This document shows, one piece after another, positions 1 through 8,762 of a stretch of 11,624 nt of DNA. This DNA comes from Desulfuromusa sp. (lineage in GTDB: Bacteria; Desulfobacterota; Desulfuromonadia; Desulfuromonadales; Geopsychrobacteraceae). The position numbers and the translations under genes are program-made. Where the stretch lies: assembly GCA_029934095.1 (NCBI GenBank), contig JAOZMV010000023.1, positions 1 through 11,624 on the forward strand. Reading direction: 5' to 3'. Position 1 is the stretch's first letter; the number at the start of each line of letters is the position of its first letter. The notes beneath the pieces are model-generated. The model was not told the origin of the DNA. It saw only the letters and a list, made by a program, of their open reading frames with translations, and searched no databases.

Positions 1-303
1 CTCAAGCAGCCAGACCCGGGAACTTCGGGCGGACAGCCCTCAATCGTTCCCCTATTCGACCTTGCTCCGGATGGGGTTTACCGAGCTTCCAACGTCACCG
101 TTAGAACTGGTGAGCTCTTACCTCACCCTTTCACCCTTATCCGCCTTCGCAATGCTTCGGCAGACGGTCTTCTCTCTGTGGCACTTTCCCTGGGGTTACC
201 CCCGGTTCCCGTTAGGAACCATCCTGTCCTCTGGAGCCCGGACTTTCCTCCCCCCACACCAGCTAAAGCTTTGGTGGGCGGCGATCATCTGTCCTTCTTT
301 GAC
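1..303 (-). ncRNA. rnpB: RNase P RNA, bacterial type A, 3' end cut off by window edge
   Basis: This is the catalytic RNA of ribonuclease P, which removes 5' leaders from tRNA precursors. On the minus strand the conserved block GAGGAAAGTCCGGGCTCC lies at 233-250. It is followed by stretches closely matching E. coli rnpB as I recall it: CAGAGAG, AAGGGTGAAAGGGTG, and TAAGAGCTCACC. The L15 loop GGTAAA, whose GGU pairs with the tRNA 3' CCA, is at 77-82, and AGCAAGGTCGAATAGG is at 51-66. The last bases in the window (CTGCTTGAG) correspond to roughly nucleotide 320 of about 377 in E. coli, so some 55-60 bases of the 3' end, including the 3' half of P4, lie outside. The 5' end is estimated from the promoter at 308-336 and is uncertain by a few bases. 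The gene lies 15 bases after the zinc-ribbon stop codon. Confidence 0.95.
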
Positions 304-2499: not shown

Positions 2500-2529
2500 A
2501 GAATAAGAAAAGTGACCCACCACTGTCAA
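2500..2529 (-). promoter_or_regulatory. Candidate sigma-70 promoter of the tRNA gene
   Basis: A perfect TTGACA (2524-2529) and TATTCT (2500-2505, 4 of 6 to consensus) are 18 bases apart on the minus strand. The predicted start is close to 2493, about 10 bases before the mature tRNA 5' end. This gives the tRNA its own transcription, separate from rpoD. Confidence 0.65.
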
Positions 2530-2595
2530 GTGAAAGTATCTTTTTCACCTACAAAAATTGATGACCTGCAAGGCGTAGGGGACTGAATTCACATT

Positions 2596-2636
2596 CTGTC
2601 TCCCGAAACCCGGGGACAGACCTCAGGTCAGGCCCC
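2596..2636. repeat. REP-like palindrome pair after rpoD
   Basis: The plus strand holds an imperfect palindrome with arms GGGG (2612-2615) and CCCC (2633-2636) around GACCT (2619-2623), C, AGGTC (2625-2629). Overlapping it is a second hairpin: CTGTC (2596-2600) with GACAG (2615-2619), plus CCCG with CGGG. The two share bases and cannot form together. The core (GGGGACAGACCT) resembles repetitive extragenic palindromes I recall from proteobacterial genomes. Only one copy is in this window, so its repeated nature is unproven. No U run follows on either strand, so it is not a typical intrinsic terminator. The rest of 2530-2701 shows nothing else I can name. Confidence 0.4.
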
Positions 2637-2701
2637 TCACAGTCGAGATCCTGAAAAACTGCTGCAACACCGGAGGGTGGACTTTTTGCCACGCCAAGCT
2701 A

Positions 2702-4447
2702 TCAACTTTCAGTGGAAGCAAATCCCCGCAATCTTTTTGCTCGACTTGGATGGCGTAGTTTACGCAGAGCCTTGGCCTCAATCTGTCGAATCCGCTCACG
2801 GGTTACGTTGAAATCTTGACCAACTTCTTCAAGGGTATGGTCAGATTTCTCACCGATTCCAAACCGCATTCGCAAAACTTTTTCTTCCCGTGGGGTCAAA
2901 GAAGCGAGCACTCGCGAAGTTTGATCGGAAAGATTTCCCTTAAGAACCGCTTCCAATGGTGAGATAACGGCTTTGTCTTCAATAAAATCACCAAGTGAGG
3001 AGTCTTCCTCCTCTCCGATTGGAGTTTCCAGACTGATGGGTTCTTTGGCAATCTTCAGGACTCGCCGAACCTTATCCAGGGGAAGGTCCATCCGCTCAGC
3101 AATTTCCTCCGGAGTCGGTTCACGACCACACTCCTGAACCAACTGCCGGGTGGTTCTTATCAGCTTGTTGATCGTCTCTATCATATGCACCGGAATCCTG
3201 ATAGTCCGAGCCTGGTCAGCGATCGCCCGAGTGATTGCCTGACGAATCCACCAGGTTGCATAGGTGGAAAACTTATAGCCTCGGCGGTATTCGAACTTGT
3301 CAACCGCCTTCATCAAGCCGATATTCCCCTCCTGAATCAGGTCAAGAAACTGCAAACCACGATTGGTATATTTTTTTGCAATGGAAACAACCAAGCGCAG
3401 ATTGGCCTCAACCAGCTCAGCTTTTGCTTTTTTGGCAATCCACTCACCCTTATAAACTTTTTTCAGGTATTCCAGCAAATCGCCAGGTTCAAACCCGGAC
3501 TCTTCCGTAACCCGTTTAAATTTACGTTCCGCCGATAACAAGCGTTTCTCTACCGACAAAAGGATATCACCGGCAACATTCAACTCGTTGGCAACAGCGT
3601 GTGCATCCTCATCACTCTGCCGCATCCGGGTCAAATAGCCACTGATCTCACTATAAGGACGACTGACTTTCTCTTCACAGTCAGCGATTTCAGCCTTCCC
3701 TTTTTTCACCTGATCACCCATATCCTTCAGGCGGTCAACGATTTTGGCAACCTGAAAATCCTTCAGGTGAACCTCCCGCAGCAGCTTGATCAGTTGATCG
3801 CGGGCAGCAGTCTGTTGTGTTTCCAGTTCTTTCTGCTTTTTCTTAGCCGGAGCTGCCAACAATGATTCCTGGATTTCCCCTAGATGTTGTTCCAGAGCAC
3901 CGAGCTTTTCGTGCAGTTCCAACAGCCGCTTACGCTGCGTCCCTTCAACTTCGCCCCCCTCTTCCTCATCATAGTCGCGGGTTATATCAGAAACCCGGGC
4001 CTGTTCCTTTTCCAGCCGCCCCAGCAACTGCATCACTGCATGAGCAGCAATCGGGGTTCGCATCACCACTTTAGTCACCTGGGCTTCACCCTCTTCAATC
4101 CGTTTGGCGATTTCAACTTCACCCTCACGGGTCAGCAGGGCAACCTGGCCCATTTCACGCAGATACATACGTACCGGGTCACTGGTTCTGCCAAGGGTTC
4201 CCGCCTCTAACTCAACTTCTCGTTCGTCACCTTCACTCTCATCATCCTTTGAGTTTGAAGCTTTACTCTCAGATTCGACTACTTCGATATCCATTTCACC
4301 AAACATACTCATGACATCCTCAAGTTGCTCCGAGGAGACCATGTTGGCGGGCAACATATCATTCACTTCGTCGTAGGTGAGAAAACCTCTCTCCTTGCCC
4401 ATATCGATCAGCTGTTGAATTTCATCCGGATTAATTTTTTTAGCCAT
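2702..4447 (-). CDS. rpoD: RNA polymerase primary sigma factor (sigma-70)
   Basis: The housekeeping sigma factor directs RNA polymerase to -10/-35 promoters. The 581 residues show the full domain order. Region 1.1 is about residues 1-55, followed by an acidic linker (about 55-80). Region 1.2 contains [11 protein letters not shown] (90-100). A charged non-conserved region, partly coiled coil, spans about 130-330. Region 2 runs about 344-415, with [21 protein letters not shown] for -10 recognition and melting. Region 3 is about 420-500. Region 4 is about 515-575, with [14 protein letters not shown] and the helix-turn-helix [10 protein letters not shown] that reads the -35 box. The ATG start has AGGAG about 12 bases upstream, a rather long spacing. 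It lies 65 bases after dnaG, last in the macromolecular-synthesis operon, and ends in TGA. Confidence 0.98.
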
Positions 4448-4512: not shown

Positions 4513-6351
4513 CTACTTTAGATTTGTAAACTCTTTCAACGAATCATTTAGATTTTCTGTTTCGCTACCCTGCTCATAGTAACGAATTTTATCAAGCGAC
4601 TCCCCCCGTCGCCGCTTGCTTTGTTCGTATTGTAATGCCTTCAGACAGTCGGTAAAAATAGCATCAACATTCTCACTGAATTGACCCTGATCAAATCTGG
4701 ATAAATCAATCAGTAGAGGGACCTTGTCGGGGTCAAGCTTGCTGATTAAAGATTTTATATCGAAGCCGGAATCGGTGGCATTATCCAGCAGAAGCTGTGC
4801 TATTTCCAGGGCATCCTGATGATTAAAAAGATCGTGCCCCCCGGCCGCGATTATTTTTTCTTGAGAAACATGATTCTGCAATAAAAGACAGAGTAAAGTT
4901 TTTTCCGAACGACTCCAGCCCGGTTTCAATTCAGCCGGTTTGACTACTTCAGTATAAACATCTCCGACAGCACCGGAAAAAGGGGCTTCCGGGAGGGGAT
5001 AATCCTCAGGCGGTGGCGCTGCGGAATAAATACTCCTTTTCTGCTGCCCCCGATCAGTTACCTTTTTCTTCACCTCTTTCAGCTGCTCCAGGTCAATGCC
5101 ACTGCGTTGAGCCAATTCTTTCAAATAAAGGTCCTGCTCCAGCTCGCTACTCAACCCGGCAATCTGCTCTACAATCTTTTCAGCTGCCTGCGCCTTCTGT
5201 TCAATCCCACGACCCGCTTCAGTCAGAAGATCATCAATAAACAGATCCATCACCGAACGTGCTTTTTCAAGTCGAAGCCGAAAAGCCTCAGCACCCTCCC
5301 GCTGGACGAAAGAATCGGGATCATCTCCACCGGGCAACTCAATCACCGCAGCCGGGAGCCCTCCCTCTTGCAATACCGTCATCGCCTTGAATGTTGCCTT
5401 CCTCCCGGCGGTATCCTGATCAAACAACAGCACCACCCGTTGCACGTAGCGCTTGAGAATTCGCACATGATCCACAGTTAAAGCAGTTCCACAGGTTGCA
5501 ACAACCTGGGGAAACCCGGCTCGACACAACGCCAGTTGATCAAAATAACCTTCAACTACCAGGACCTCCCCACTCTGGCGCATCGCTTGCCGCGCCTGAT
5601 AGAGGCCAAACAGAACCCCCCCTTTATGATAAATCGGAGATTCCGGTGAATTGATATATTTTGGTTTATTGTCATCCAGTACCCGTCCGGCAAAAGCAAC
5701 AATCTGTCCAGACAAATCATAAATCGGAAAGATCAACCGCCCTCGAAACAGGTCATAATCACCTTCGTTCTGCTTGCGCGGACGAATCAACCCAAGAGTC
5801 CGAGCATCTTCAGTCCGGCATTCTTTTTCTTCAAGATGCCTTTTCAACCCATCCCAGGAATCAAGGGCAAAACCAATTTGATACTCCCCGGCAGCCTTAC
5901 GTCCATAACCGCGAGTTTTCATATACGTTCTTGCCACAGCACCAGCCGGGTGATCCATCAATAATTGATGAAAATAGCTTGCAGCAACTTCATTGACCCG
6001 ATAGAGCCGTTCCCGCTGCCGCTGCCGTTGTTCTTCTTCAGGCGACAGCGTTCGCTCTTCCAGATCGATCCCGATCCGTTCCGCTAAACGGCGCACGGCA
6101 TCAGGAAAAGTGAGCCCTTCGATCTGCATCAAAAAGGAGAAAGCATCTCCACCAACGCCACAACCAAAACAATGAAAGAATTGCCGGGCAGAGTTCACAC
6201 TGAACGAGGGGGACTTTTCTGAATGAAATGGGCAGAGACCCATATGATTAACACCGGAGCGCTTCAAACTGACATATTGTGAAATCAATTCGACAATATC
6301 AGTCTGTTCACGAACTTCGTTAATCTTACCTTCTGAAATTTGTCCGGTCAT
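4513..6351 (-). CDS. dnaG: DNA primase
   Basis: Primase makes the RNA primers for the lagging strand and chromosome initiation and works with the DnaB helicase. The 612 residues, near the usual length, begin with a CHC2 zinc finger whose ligands are C40, H43, C61 and C64. The catalytic core follows. Its TOPRIM fold carries E267 in VVEGYFD and the DxD pair D311/D313 in LLFDQD, which bind metal, and a further GGDDPD at about 341-346. The C-terminal 150 residues are the helical DnaB-binding region. The ATG overlaps the TGA that closes the mutS2 reading frame (ATGA), and there is only a weak GAG upstream, so translation probably relies on coupling to mutS2. The gene ends in TAG. An in-frame extension of 21 codons would reach a TAA that overlaps the rpoD ATG. 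Confidence 0.98.
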   Translation of the reverse strand: MTGQISEGKINEVREQTDIVELISQYVSLKRSGVNHMGLCPFHSEKSPSFSVNSARQFFHCFGCGVGGDAFSFLMQIEGLTFPDAVRRLAERIGIDLEERTLSPEEEQRQRQRERLYRVNEVAASYFHQLLMDHPAGAVARTYMKTRGYGRKAAGEYQIGFALDSWDGLKRHLEEKECRTEDARTLGLIRPRKQNEGDYDLFRGRLIFPIYDLSGQIVAFAGRVLDDNKPKYINSPESPIYHKGGVLFGLYQARQAMRQSGEVLVVEGYFDQLALCRAGFPQVVATCGTALTVDHVRILKRYVQRVVLLFDQDTAGRKATFKAMTVLQEGGLPAAVIELPGGDDPDSFVQREGAEAFRLRLEKARSVMDLFIDDLLTEAGRGIEQKAQAAEKIVEQIAGLSSELEQDLYLKELAQRSGIDLEQLKEVKKKVTDRGQQKRSIYSAAPPPEDYPLPEAPFSGAVGDVYTEVVKPAELKPGWSRSEKTLLCLLLQNHVSQEKIIAAGGHDLFNHQDALEIAQLLLDNATDSGFDIKSLISKLDPDKVPLLIDLSRFDQGQFSENVDAIFTDCLKALQYEQSKRRRGESLDKIRYYEQGSETENLNDSLKEFTNLK

Positions 6352-6500
6352 GAGTGACTCAATTCAGCGATCGTTATATTTTCTCCACCCTGATCTGCCG
6401 GTGCAGCATAAAATGCTGTAACCCCTTTTTCCCCGGCTAAATGTTCACGCACCGCTCGGCGGAGAATACCTTCCCCGGCGCCATGGATAATTTCAACCTG
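6348..6500 (-). pseudogene. C-terminal part of the MutS2 Smr domain, cut off by an in-frame TAG
   Basis: Read in the same frame as mutS2 straight through the TAG at 6501-6503, this stretch encodes 50 residues beginning QVEIIHGAGEGILRRAV and ending at a TGA (6348-6350) that overlaps the dnaG start. IIHGxGxG is the signature glycine-rich loop of Smr domains, followed by the expected helix and a closing strand (ITIAEL). The full frame 6348-8762 would give 804 residues, normal for MutS2. There are no other stops or frame breaks. No start codon with a good ribosome-binding site is visible, so it is unlikely to be made separately. It is either a remnant of a recent nonsense mutation or the readthrough tail of MutS2. 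Confidence 0.8.
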
Positions 6501-8762
6501 CTATAAGTTATTCAGCATGGCATCATCAATAAAGCGTTCTAAATGAGCCAGTGCTTCATCAACCCGCTGACCTATCAACTTTAACCGGGTACTGATCTGC
6601 CGCTCTACGACTTTACGGGAGACTTGTCCGCTAACCTTGAATGGTTCAACAAAACGGCGTGGTTTAAACTGCTCCAGTGCCGCCAATGGTTGCCGCATCC
6701 GCTTACCACCCACCAGCAACTCGACACTCTCACCATGCAAACGCTCAACCTGTGCTTCAATCCCCAAAGCCGGGATTCGCAACAACTCTCCTACCACCAA
6801 TTCTACCGGAATAGCTCCTGTCCGTTTCTGCTTTGGCTTAAACGGTTTCAGCTCCTCCCTGGCAATGGTGAGTTGCTGCCGTTCATCGATAGATTGGAGC
6901 GGCAAGACCGGGCCGGGTTTATGCTTACGCAATTTTTTCATGCGTGCCTCGGTCGCCGTAATCAACTCCTCCGCCTGACGGGTTGCCCGAGCAAGAATCT
7001 CCCGCTTTTTCTCTTTGAGCTGGCTCAATTGCCGCTTCCGTAACTGCTGCGCAATATCCGCCTCAATGCGGGACTGTTTTACCTGCGACAATTCATCTTC
7101 CAACTCCTGCTGGCGGGCATTGAGTCGTGTCAGCAGAACGCTATGGTCATGCTCCTCTTCACCGAGGTATTGAACCGCCCGCTGGATAACTGGAGTGGGC
7201 AAACCCAGCCGTCTGGCCGTTGTCAACGCACTACTGGCACCAGGAATCCCATAACGCAACCGATAAGTCGGGAGCAGTGTTTCAGGATCAAACCCAACCG
7301 CAGCATTTTCAATCGCAGCATGCCCGTGAGCAAAATGCTTCAATTGTCCCAGATGGGTCGTCAGCACTATTTTCGCCCCCTGCCGGCAAAGCTGGTCAAG
7401 AACCGCCTGGATCAGGGCTGCCCCTTCTGCCGGATCGGTTCCGGTCCCCGCTTCATCAAGCAAGACCAAAGTTTCTGCATCAGCCTGTTCAAGAATTTCT
7501 CGAACCTTCAACAAGTGACCGGAAAAAGTTGACAGACTCTCTTCAATACTCTGTTCATCACCAATATCGACATGCAGATGCTGATAGAGGTGGAGCCGGC
7601 TATCGGGATCGCAAGGGATATGCAGCCCTGAACGCACCATCAACAACAGCAATCCCAGAGTTTTTAATGCGACCGATTTCCCCCCGGTATTCGGGCCGCT
7701 GATCACCAGAGCATGACAGCCCTCTGGCAGCAGGATATCGACTGGAGCGGCAGCCGACAGATCAAAGTGACCGTCCACTTCCATCAATAGCGGGTGTCGA
7801 GCTTGCCGCAGTTCGACAATCGAGTCGCTCACCAATTCAGGACGGCAGCCATGATAGCTGCGCGACAATCTTGCCGCTGCAAAACGGAGATCTATCCGTG
7901 CCAGAAAAGTCTGATTTATATCCAGAACAGCGGCATCACGCCGTACCAACTCTGCCAGCTGCAACAGAATCCGTCGTTCCTCACGCTGTTCTTCTCGAAC
8001 TAACTGCTGGAGCCGATTGTTCCCTTCCAGAACCTGAGAAGGTTCTAGATAAAGAGTTTGCCCACTCGCTGATTCATCCTGAACAAAACCTTTTATCTGG
8101 CCCCGACAATCACTTTTTAACGGCACCACATAGCGATTATTGCGGATGGTTATCAACCGCTCCTGAAACAAGCTGGATGAATGATCCCCGGTCAACAACT
8201 GATCCAACTGCTGCTTGATCCGACTCTTGGTCTGGCGAATCTGATAACGCAAATCGCCCAGCTCAAACGAGGCGCTATCGAGAAGTTCACCACGCGAACT
8301 GATTGAATCCTGCAGGCGCCGCTGCAACTCAGGCAGTGCTACTATCCCTGCGGCCGCTTGAGCCAATCGAGATTTCTGATCCTGGGTCTTGAACCAATGT
8401 CGACAATCCCCCATAACCCGCAATGACTGGGCTACTTTCAGCAGATCTTCGACAACAATCAGGCTCCCTTCAGCCTGAACCGACTTGAGCAATACTGACA
8501 GATCCCAACAACCACCTAACGAGGGAGACTGTCCATCGAGTAACCACTGAACCGACTCATCAACCTCCGTCAAGGCCGCATCAATAACATCCCGGTCGGA
8601 CAATGGGACTAATTGTGCCGCCTGTAAATATCCCGGCTCCGATTGAGTTTGACCTGCCAACAGGGTTCTCAGTCGTGGGTATTCAAGTCGTTGTAATGCT
8701 GCTTCGTTACAGATCATCTGGATTTCAAATAAATTGGGTCGTGTTGCCCCGCTATCGACCAA
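6501..8762 (-). CDS. mutS2: MutS2-family ATPase, Smr domain interrupted by an amber codon
   Basis: MutS2 is a MutS-related dimeric ATPase linked to suppression of recombination and, in some Firmicutes, to rescue of collided ribosomes. The 753 residues before the stop include the core and lever helices (about 1-330) and the ATPase. Walker A is GPNTGGKS (356-363), the signature loop is STFSGHL (411-417), and Walker B is LVLLDEAGTGTDP with D436/E437. A coiled coil of about 540-610, a KOW-like beta region of about 655-700, and the start of the Smr domain from about 725 follow. TAG at 6501-6503 ends the frame inside Smr. The Smr motif that usually reads LDLRG is LKLIG here (727-731), so nuclease activity is doubtful even if read through. 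The TTG start has GGAG 5 bases upstream and overlaps cvpA by 11 bases. An ATG at residue 16 (8717) is an alternative that matches family N-termini but has no clear ribosome-binding site. Confidence 0.93.
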   Translation of the reverse strand: MVDSGATRPNLFEIQMICNEAALQRLEYPRLRTLLAGQTQSEPGYLQAAQLVPLSDRDVIDAALTEVDESVQWLLDGQSPSLGGCWDLSVLLKSVQAEGSLIVVEDLLKVAQSLRVMGDCRHWFKTQDQKSRLAQAAAGIVALPELQRRLQDSISSRGELLDSASFELGDLRYQIRQTKSRIKQQLDQLLTGDHSSSLFQERLITIRNNRYVVPLKSDCRGQIKGFVQDESASGQTLYLEPSQVLEGNNRLQQLVREEQREERRILLQLAELVRRDAAVLDINQTFLARIDLRFAAARLSRSYHGCRPELVSDSIVELRQARHPLLMEVDGHFDLSAAAPVDILLPEGCHALVISGPNTGGKSVALKTLGLLLLMVRSGLHIPCDPDSRLHLYQHLHVDIGDEQSIEESLSTFSGHLLKVREILEQADAETLVLLDEAGTGTDPAEGAALIQAVLDQLCRQGAKIVLTTHLGQLKHFAHGHAAIENAAVGFDPETLLPTYRLRYGIPGASSALTTARRLGLPTPVIQRAVQYLGEEEHDHSVLLTRLNARQQELEDELSQVKQSRIEADIAQQLRKRQLSQLKEKKREILARATRQAEELITATEARMKKLRKHKPGPVLPLQSIDERQQLTIAREELKPFKPKQKRTGAIPVELVVGELLRIPALGIEAQVERLHGESVELLVGGKRMRQPLAALEQFKPRRFVEPFKVSGQVSRKVVERQISTRLKLIGQRVDEALAHLERFIDDAMLNNL

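What the first reader, a model, noticed from the sequence alone, without database searches (positions are those of the whole stretch)
6348..6520. In-frame amber codon inside the Smr domain of MutS2, with an intact reading frame beyond it
Seen: TAG at 6501-6503 follows ...DDAMLNNL, and the same frame continues for 50 sense codons with the Smr signature IIHGxGxG, to a TGA overlapping dnaG. No second lesion is present, so the event is very recent, an assembly error, or tolerated because the UAG is sometimes read. Known: UAG can be read as pyrrolysine in some bacteria that carry the pyl genes, or by amber suppressor tRNAs. Inference: the cell makes either a MutS2 lacking most of Smr or a mix of short and long forms. 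A plain nonsense mutation is the simplest reading.
Basis: partly seen in the sequence, partly recalled or inferred. Interest (0 to 1): 0.72.

Follow-up and report, generated by a model that had tools for sequence, protein, structure and literature searches.

The report
Premature stop in one MutS2 gene
In this draft genome of an uncultured bacterium related to Desulfuromusa, one base makes an early stop codon in the gene for MutS2, a ribosome-rescue and DNA-transaction protein; a near-identical protein and the relatives read lack it, so it is most likely an ordinary recent mutation or a sequencing error, not unusual decoding.

Summary
On the minus strand an in-frame TAG at 6503-6501 splits mutS2 into a long front part and 50 open codons that hold the rest of the Smr domain, ending at a TGA that overlaps the dnaG ATG.

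The genome is a MAG (1.78 Mb, 309 contigs, 79% complete) near Desulfuromusa.

0 of 28 relatives read at the site have a stop. A near-identical full-length protein and the closest relative have serine, one substitution from TAG. The tail has 5 synonymous changes and no amino-acid change besides the stop against that relative.

Reading of UAG found no support. RF1 is intact. TAG ends 67 of 320 sampled ORFs. PylD and PylS reach cut-off in none of 98 and 60 genomes. No CTA anticodon is among 19 own tRNAs or 46 of a complete relative. The own tRNA set is incomplete, so this is not excluded.

Best reading: a very recent nonsense allele or a one-base consensus error. Only reads can decide.

The parts
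6504..8717 (-). mutS2 front part from the ATG at 8717 that relatives use as start (738 codons; an upstream TTG at 8762 is also in frame and gives 753): core and ATPase regions plus the first part of Smr
   Evidence: Scored from 8762: NCBIfam TIGR01069 mutS2 698.9 bits, profile 2-741 of 790; Pfam MutS_V. Relatives' proteins begin MICNEAALQ
6501..6503 (-). in-frame TAG, premature stop
   Evidence: Read directly. No stop at this column in 40 of 40 relative rows: 28 relatives fetched plus 12 named records, largely the same contigs
6351..6500 (-). 50 open codons after the stop: the rest of the Smr domain, with IIHGAGEG
   Evidence: Pfam Smr 44.8 bits, positions 29-76 of 77; TIGR01069 positions 744-790
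6348..6350 (-). the mutS2 stop TGA of the uninterrupted frame, overlapping the dnaG ATG (ATGA)
   Evidence: same overlap in 21 of the 28 relatives whose 3' end was read
4513..6351 (-). dnaG (primase), downstream, no stop inside
   Evidence: TIGR01391 449.4 bits, over its cut-off of 283.6

Best explanation
A very recent single-base nonsense substitution in mutS2 of one Desulfuromusa-like lineage. Shown: an in-frame TAG where a near-identical full-length protein and the closest relative have serine, with an otherwise intact tail. Inferred: the cell ends MutS2 after residue 738 (counted from the ATG at 8717), inside Smr, so the product lacks the HGxGxG half of Smr and is probably impaired; binding to collided ribosomes would be weakened, as for Smr-less MutS2 of B. 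subtilis, though some activity may remain. Also inferred: loss of translation over the last 150 nt may lower coupled initiation of dnaG. It is an ordinary loss-of-function or reduced-function allele, not a decoding system.
For: The closest relative has a serine codon with identical 9-base flanks on both sides. P0001, 804 aa, matches the window read-through except at 154 (I/V), 726 (R/Q) and 754 (stop/S), ignoring the TTG start. Tail against the closest relative: 5 synonymous codon changes and no amino-acid change other than the stop. Of the 120 best homologues listed (of 7998), only P0106 has no Smr call. RF1 is intact in the own genome (563.5 bits, no stop inside; over cut-off in 12 of 14 genomes of the genus). 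TAG ends 67 of 320 ORFs that have a stop, in 81 contigs sampled, 452 kb. 313 of 7092 single substitutions in this gene give a stop. B. subtilis MutS2 without SMR binds ribosomes much less (PMC10897456, section 14 and passages).
Against: No reads or second assembly of this strain could be checked, so a consensus error fits almost equally well. P0001's source is not shown by the tool, so that it comes from the same species is inferred from identity. For the functional step: the B. subtilis paper's discussion says that the KOW-uS10 contact may suffice for partial activity without SMR (passage).
Confidence: 0.57

Rival explanations
1. A one-base consensus or assembly error in a metagenome-assembled genome, for example from low coverage or mixed strains. 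The organism has an intact MutS2.
For: The source is a fragmented MAG of 309 contigs, 79% complete. A near-identical protein in the database is full length with a serine. No second lesion in the tail. In a homology survey of 72 alignments one other possibly gene-internal stop was seen, a TAA in L154, in a 51%-identical alignment that ends 23 residues after the stop, so isolated disruptions may occur in this assembly.
Against: No coverage or quality data available. The neighbouring dnaG, rpoD and Nif3-like genes match their families over cut-off with no stop inside, and the sampled ORFs show few such lesions.
Confidence: 0.37
2. The UAG is decoded part of the time by a suppressor tRNA or by leaky termination, so that a mix of short and full-length MutS2 is made.
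For: The tail is intact. A second sampled ORF, L115 (contig C89), has an in-frame TAG followed by 40 coding-like codons.
Against: No CTA anticodon among 19 own tRNAs, 46 of G001 and the 21 of 22 that ARAGORN could read in the closest relative G010. RF1 intact. TAG ends 67 of 320 ORFs. The L115 ORF has no match in the other 13 genomes of the genus and no Pfam match, so its frame is unproven. The MAG is incomplete, so absence in it is weak.
Confidence: 0.04
3. The UAG encodes pyrrolysine.
For: Some marine Deltaproteobacteria do use pyrrolysine (PMC8318568, passages only; that text does not mention Desulfuromonadales or Desulfuromonas).
Against: PylD: 0 of 98 genomes (own included) over cut-off and no match at E 0.001 in the own genome. 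PylS: 0 of 60 (own included) over cut-off, one 18.6-bit hit in the own genome. Pyl-type trimethylamine methyltransferase: 0 of 14 in the genus. Of the 14 control genomes, one was over cut-off in each of these searches (named as Methanosarcina acetivorans only). The residue at this site is variable in homologues.
Confidence: 0.01
4. The truncation is a selected, stable form: this lineage uses a MutS2 without most of Smr.
For: Only that the core and ATPase parts are intact.
Against: Of the 120 best homologues listed only P0106 lacks an Smr call, and it is a shorter entry (683 aa, 85% of the query covered). The near-identical P0001 keeps Smr. No decay of the tail.
Confidence: 0.01

Closest known systems
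MutS2 (NCBIfam TIGR01069)
   Same: The read-through frame scores 763.1 bits, profile positions 2-790; it lies next to dnaG and rpoD in the window.
   Different: A stop after residue 738 (from the ATG) removes the second half of Smr.
MutS2 delta-SMR truncation of B. subtilis (PMC10897456, passages and section 14)
   Same: Loss of Smr by C-terminal truncation.
   Different: There an engineered truncation that removes all of SMR; here a natural or artefactual stop within Smr.
Pyrrolysine decoding in bacteria (PMC8318568, passages; PMC7593587, search listing only)
   Same: An in-frame TAG with an intact frame beyond it.
   Different: No pyl genes over cut-off, no Pyl-type trimethylamine methyltransferase, and a site whose residue is not conserved.

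Membership tests
MutS2 | Match to the mutS2 equivalog profile above its cut-off | tested here: met
   698.9 bits for the front part alone against a cut-off of 400; 763.1 read through
MutS2 | C-terminal Smr domain in the product as translated by the standard code | tested here: not met
   Pfam Smr is not called in the 753-codon front part; it is called in the tail and in the read-through
Pyrrolysine-encoding organism | pylD and pylS genes | tested here: not met
   0 of 98 and 0 of 60 genomes over cut-off, own genome included; own MAG 79% complete
Pyrrolysine-encoding or amber-suppressing organism | tRNA with CTA anticodon | tested here: inconclusive
   None of 19 own tRNAs, none of 46 in G001, none of 21 readable of 22 in G010; the own set is incomplete, and in G001 150 of 202 first-look candidates were scored
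Amber-recoding genome | TAG rare or absent as terminal stop, or RF1 missing | tested here: not met
   TAG ends 67 of 320 sampled ORFs; prfA intact
Ordinary nonsense allele | Sense codon one substitution away in the nearest kin, tail otherwise intact | tested here: met
Assembly error | Reads disagree with the consensus | not testable with these tools
   no reads available

The most novel reading that the evidence does not exclude
A strain-specific amber suppressor tRNA, on a part of the genome missing from the MAG, lets this lineage make a regulated mix of short and full-length MutS2, and with it adjusts dnaG translation through the ATGA overlap.
Probability: 0.02. Interest if true: 0.6.

Novelty: already known. 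Interest (0 to 1): 0.08.

Why it matters
If real, it is a natural loss-of-Smr allele of MutS2 next to primase, useful at most as a natural truncation example. Mainly it shows how a single in-frame stop in a MAG should be judged: with near-identical copies, terminal stop usage, release factor and tRNA content, before any claim of recoding.

Tried and rejected
Pyrrolysine: rejected. Weak PylD and PylS hits under cut-off occur in 87 of 98 and 49 of 60 genomes; they also ring in controls such as E. coli and B. subtilis, so I take them as cross-hits to other families (not identified here).

Restart of translation after the stop: the first in-frame ATG, GTG or TTG in the tail is preceded by 16 codons, beyond IIHGAGEG, so a separate Smr half is unlikely.

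Shared stop in relatives: one search flagged one stop in the MutS2 rows of G007, G011, G018, G022, G033, G045 and G051. For the four whose DNA was fetched (L006, L010, L019, L014), the alignments show none at this site (G007's is at query position 15, before the ATG; the other three show none inside the alignment). G033, G045 and G051 were not fetched and not examined.

Genome-wide TAG recoding: a first codon-usage scan was poorly trained, because overlapping antisense ORFs were included; it was redone with non-overlapping, mechanically called ORFs. There, 95 ORFs had 25 or more same-frame codons after the stop (46 TAA, 29 TGA, 20 TAG). Of the 28 printed (score over 0.05), most overlap another called ORF. 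mutS2 is the one I see as a clear domain interruption; L115, L159 and L100 (TAG) and L112 and L163 (TAA) are weak candidates. The 67 rows at or below 0.05 were not printed or examined. L159's nucleotidyltransferase domain ends before its TAG. The homology survey with 708 ORFs of G001 gave 72 usable alignments and 6 stops (3 TGA, 2 TAG, 1 TAA), of which I judge four, by eye, to be upstream or off-frame artefacts, and one possible frameshift split, which lies in the RNase P RNA region of the window.

Not done: structure prediction and fold search, judged not to bear on the question.

Full report
What is there. The window is the whole 11,624-base contig C96 of a MAG (1.78 Mb, 309 contigs, 78.7% complete). 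On the minus strand a mutS2 gene is interrupted by TAG at 6503-6501. From the TTG at 8762 the front part is 753 codons; from the ATG used by relatives at 8717 it is 738. After the stop the frame stays open for 50 codons to TGA 6350-6348, which overlaps the dnaG ATG. The front part scores 698.9 bits against NCBIfam mutS2 and the tail alone 45 bits to the last 47 positions of the same profile. Pfam Smr is called in the tail and in the read-through, not in the front part.

Is it more than chance? Fifty open codons have a chance of about 0.19 at this composition, so openness alone means little. The homology of the tail is what counts, and it is strong.

What sits there in relatives. One search covered 60 genomes, the own one included; 59 had a match, one of which (G050) is only a weak 28% match. 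Loci were fetched for 29 relatives; 28 reach the site (L016 does not), and none has a stop there: Gln in 15, Ser 4, Arg 3, Thr 2, Ala 2, Asp 1, Asn 1. Twelve named-record rows, largely the same contigs, also have no stop. The closest relative G010 has a serine codon one substitution from TAG, with identical flanks. In the protein search the best match, P0001 (804 aa, cluster of 12 member sequences, longest contig 22,783 bases, source not shown), is identical to the read-through except at 154 (I/V), 726 (R/Q) and 754 (stop/Ser), ignoring the TTG start. In the 120 listed homologues plus G010 the site holds Q 48, R 20, S 18, T 9, K 8, H 5, P 5, A 3, N 3, D 1, and one gap, so it is a tolerant position.

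Age. Against G010 the tail has 5 synonymous codon changes and no amino-acid change apart from the stop; the rest of the gene has 138 synonymous and 73 non-synonymous codon differences. This fits a tail under selection until very recently. P0001 has the serine, so the stop arose, or was introduced by error, after the window lineage split from that of P0001 (inference).

Is UAG read? RF1 (prfA) is intact in the own genome at 563.5 bits, with no stop inside; 12 of 14 genomes of the genus have it over cut-off. In 81 of 309 contigs (452 kb, and the window) 373 non-overlapping ORFs were called mechanically; the 320 with a stop end in TAA 144, TGA 109, TAG 67. PylD: none in the own genome, 0 of 98 genomes over cut-off. 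PylS: one 18.6-bit hit in the own genome, 0 of 60 over cut-off. Pyl-type trimethylamine methyltransferase: 0 of 14 in the genus. Limits: the own MAG is incomplete and its tRNA set clearly so.

Results that go the other way. L115 (contig C89) has an in-frame TAG followed by 40 coding-like codons, but it has no match in the other 13 genomes of the genus and no Pfam family, so it cannot be called an interruption. In a homology survey of 72 alignments (24,836 aa) there were 6 stops: the mutS2 TAG, one TAA in a 51%-identical alignment (L154), and four that look to me like upstream or off-frame artefacts. I see no excess of TAG. The survey covered about a quarter of the MAG against 800 kb of G001.

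Consequences, inferred. A MutS2 ending there keeps the core and ATPase parts and presumably the KOW region (recalled, not called by a profile here) but loses the HGxGxG half of Smr. In B. subtilis, truncation of SMR after residue 701, or mutation of the conserved His before GxG, strongly reduces binding to collided ribosomes; the discussion adds that the KOW contact may give partial activity without SMR (PMC10897456, passages and section 14 read). The mutS2 TGA overlaps the dnaG ATG in 21 of 28 relatives read, which suggests translational coupling; a stop 150 nt upstream might then lower dnaG translation. Neither effect was tested.

Verdict. Ordinary: a very recent nonsense allele or a one-base consensus error. 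These two cannot be told apart without reads. Recoding remains possible only through something not seen in this incomplete genome.

Noticed in passing
window 1-300 (-): RNase P RNA (RF00010, 235 bits), cut off at its 3' end by the contig start.
   Followed up: no
window 6348-6351: The mutS2 TGA and dnaG ATG overlap as ATGA, as in 21 of 28 relatives read; probable translational coupling.
   Followed up: partly
L115 (G000 C89) about 2508-3146 (-): An ORF of 172 codons with an in-frame TAG and 40 coding-like codons beyond; no match in the other 13 genus genomes, no Pfam match.
   Followed up: partly
L154 (G000 C245): A TAA inside an alignment (51% identity) to a G001 ORF, with 23 aligned residues beyond it.
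   Followed up: no
L073 (JADFVC010000135.1): A contig whose record is titled Chloroflexi bacterium encodes a MutS2 73% identical to this Desulfuromusa-like one; probably a misplaced contig in that MAG.
   Followed up: no
L008 and L062 (G012): mutS2 ends in TAA and no dnaG start follows at once, unlike most relatives read.
   Followed up: no
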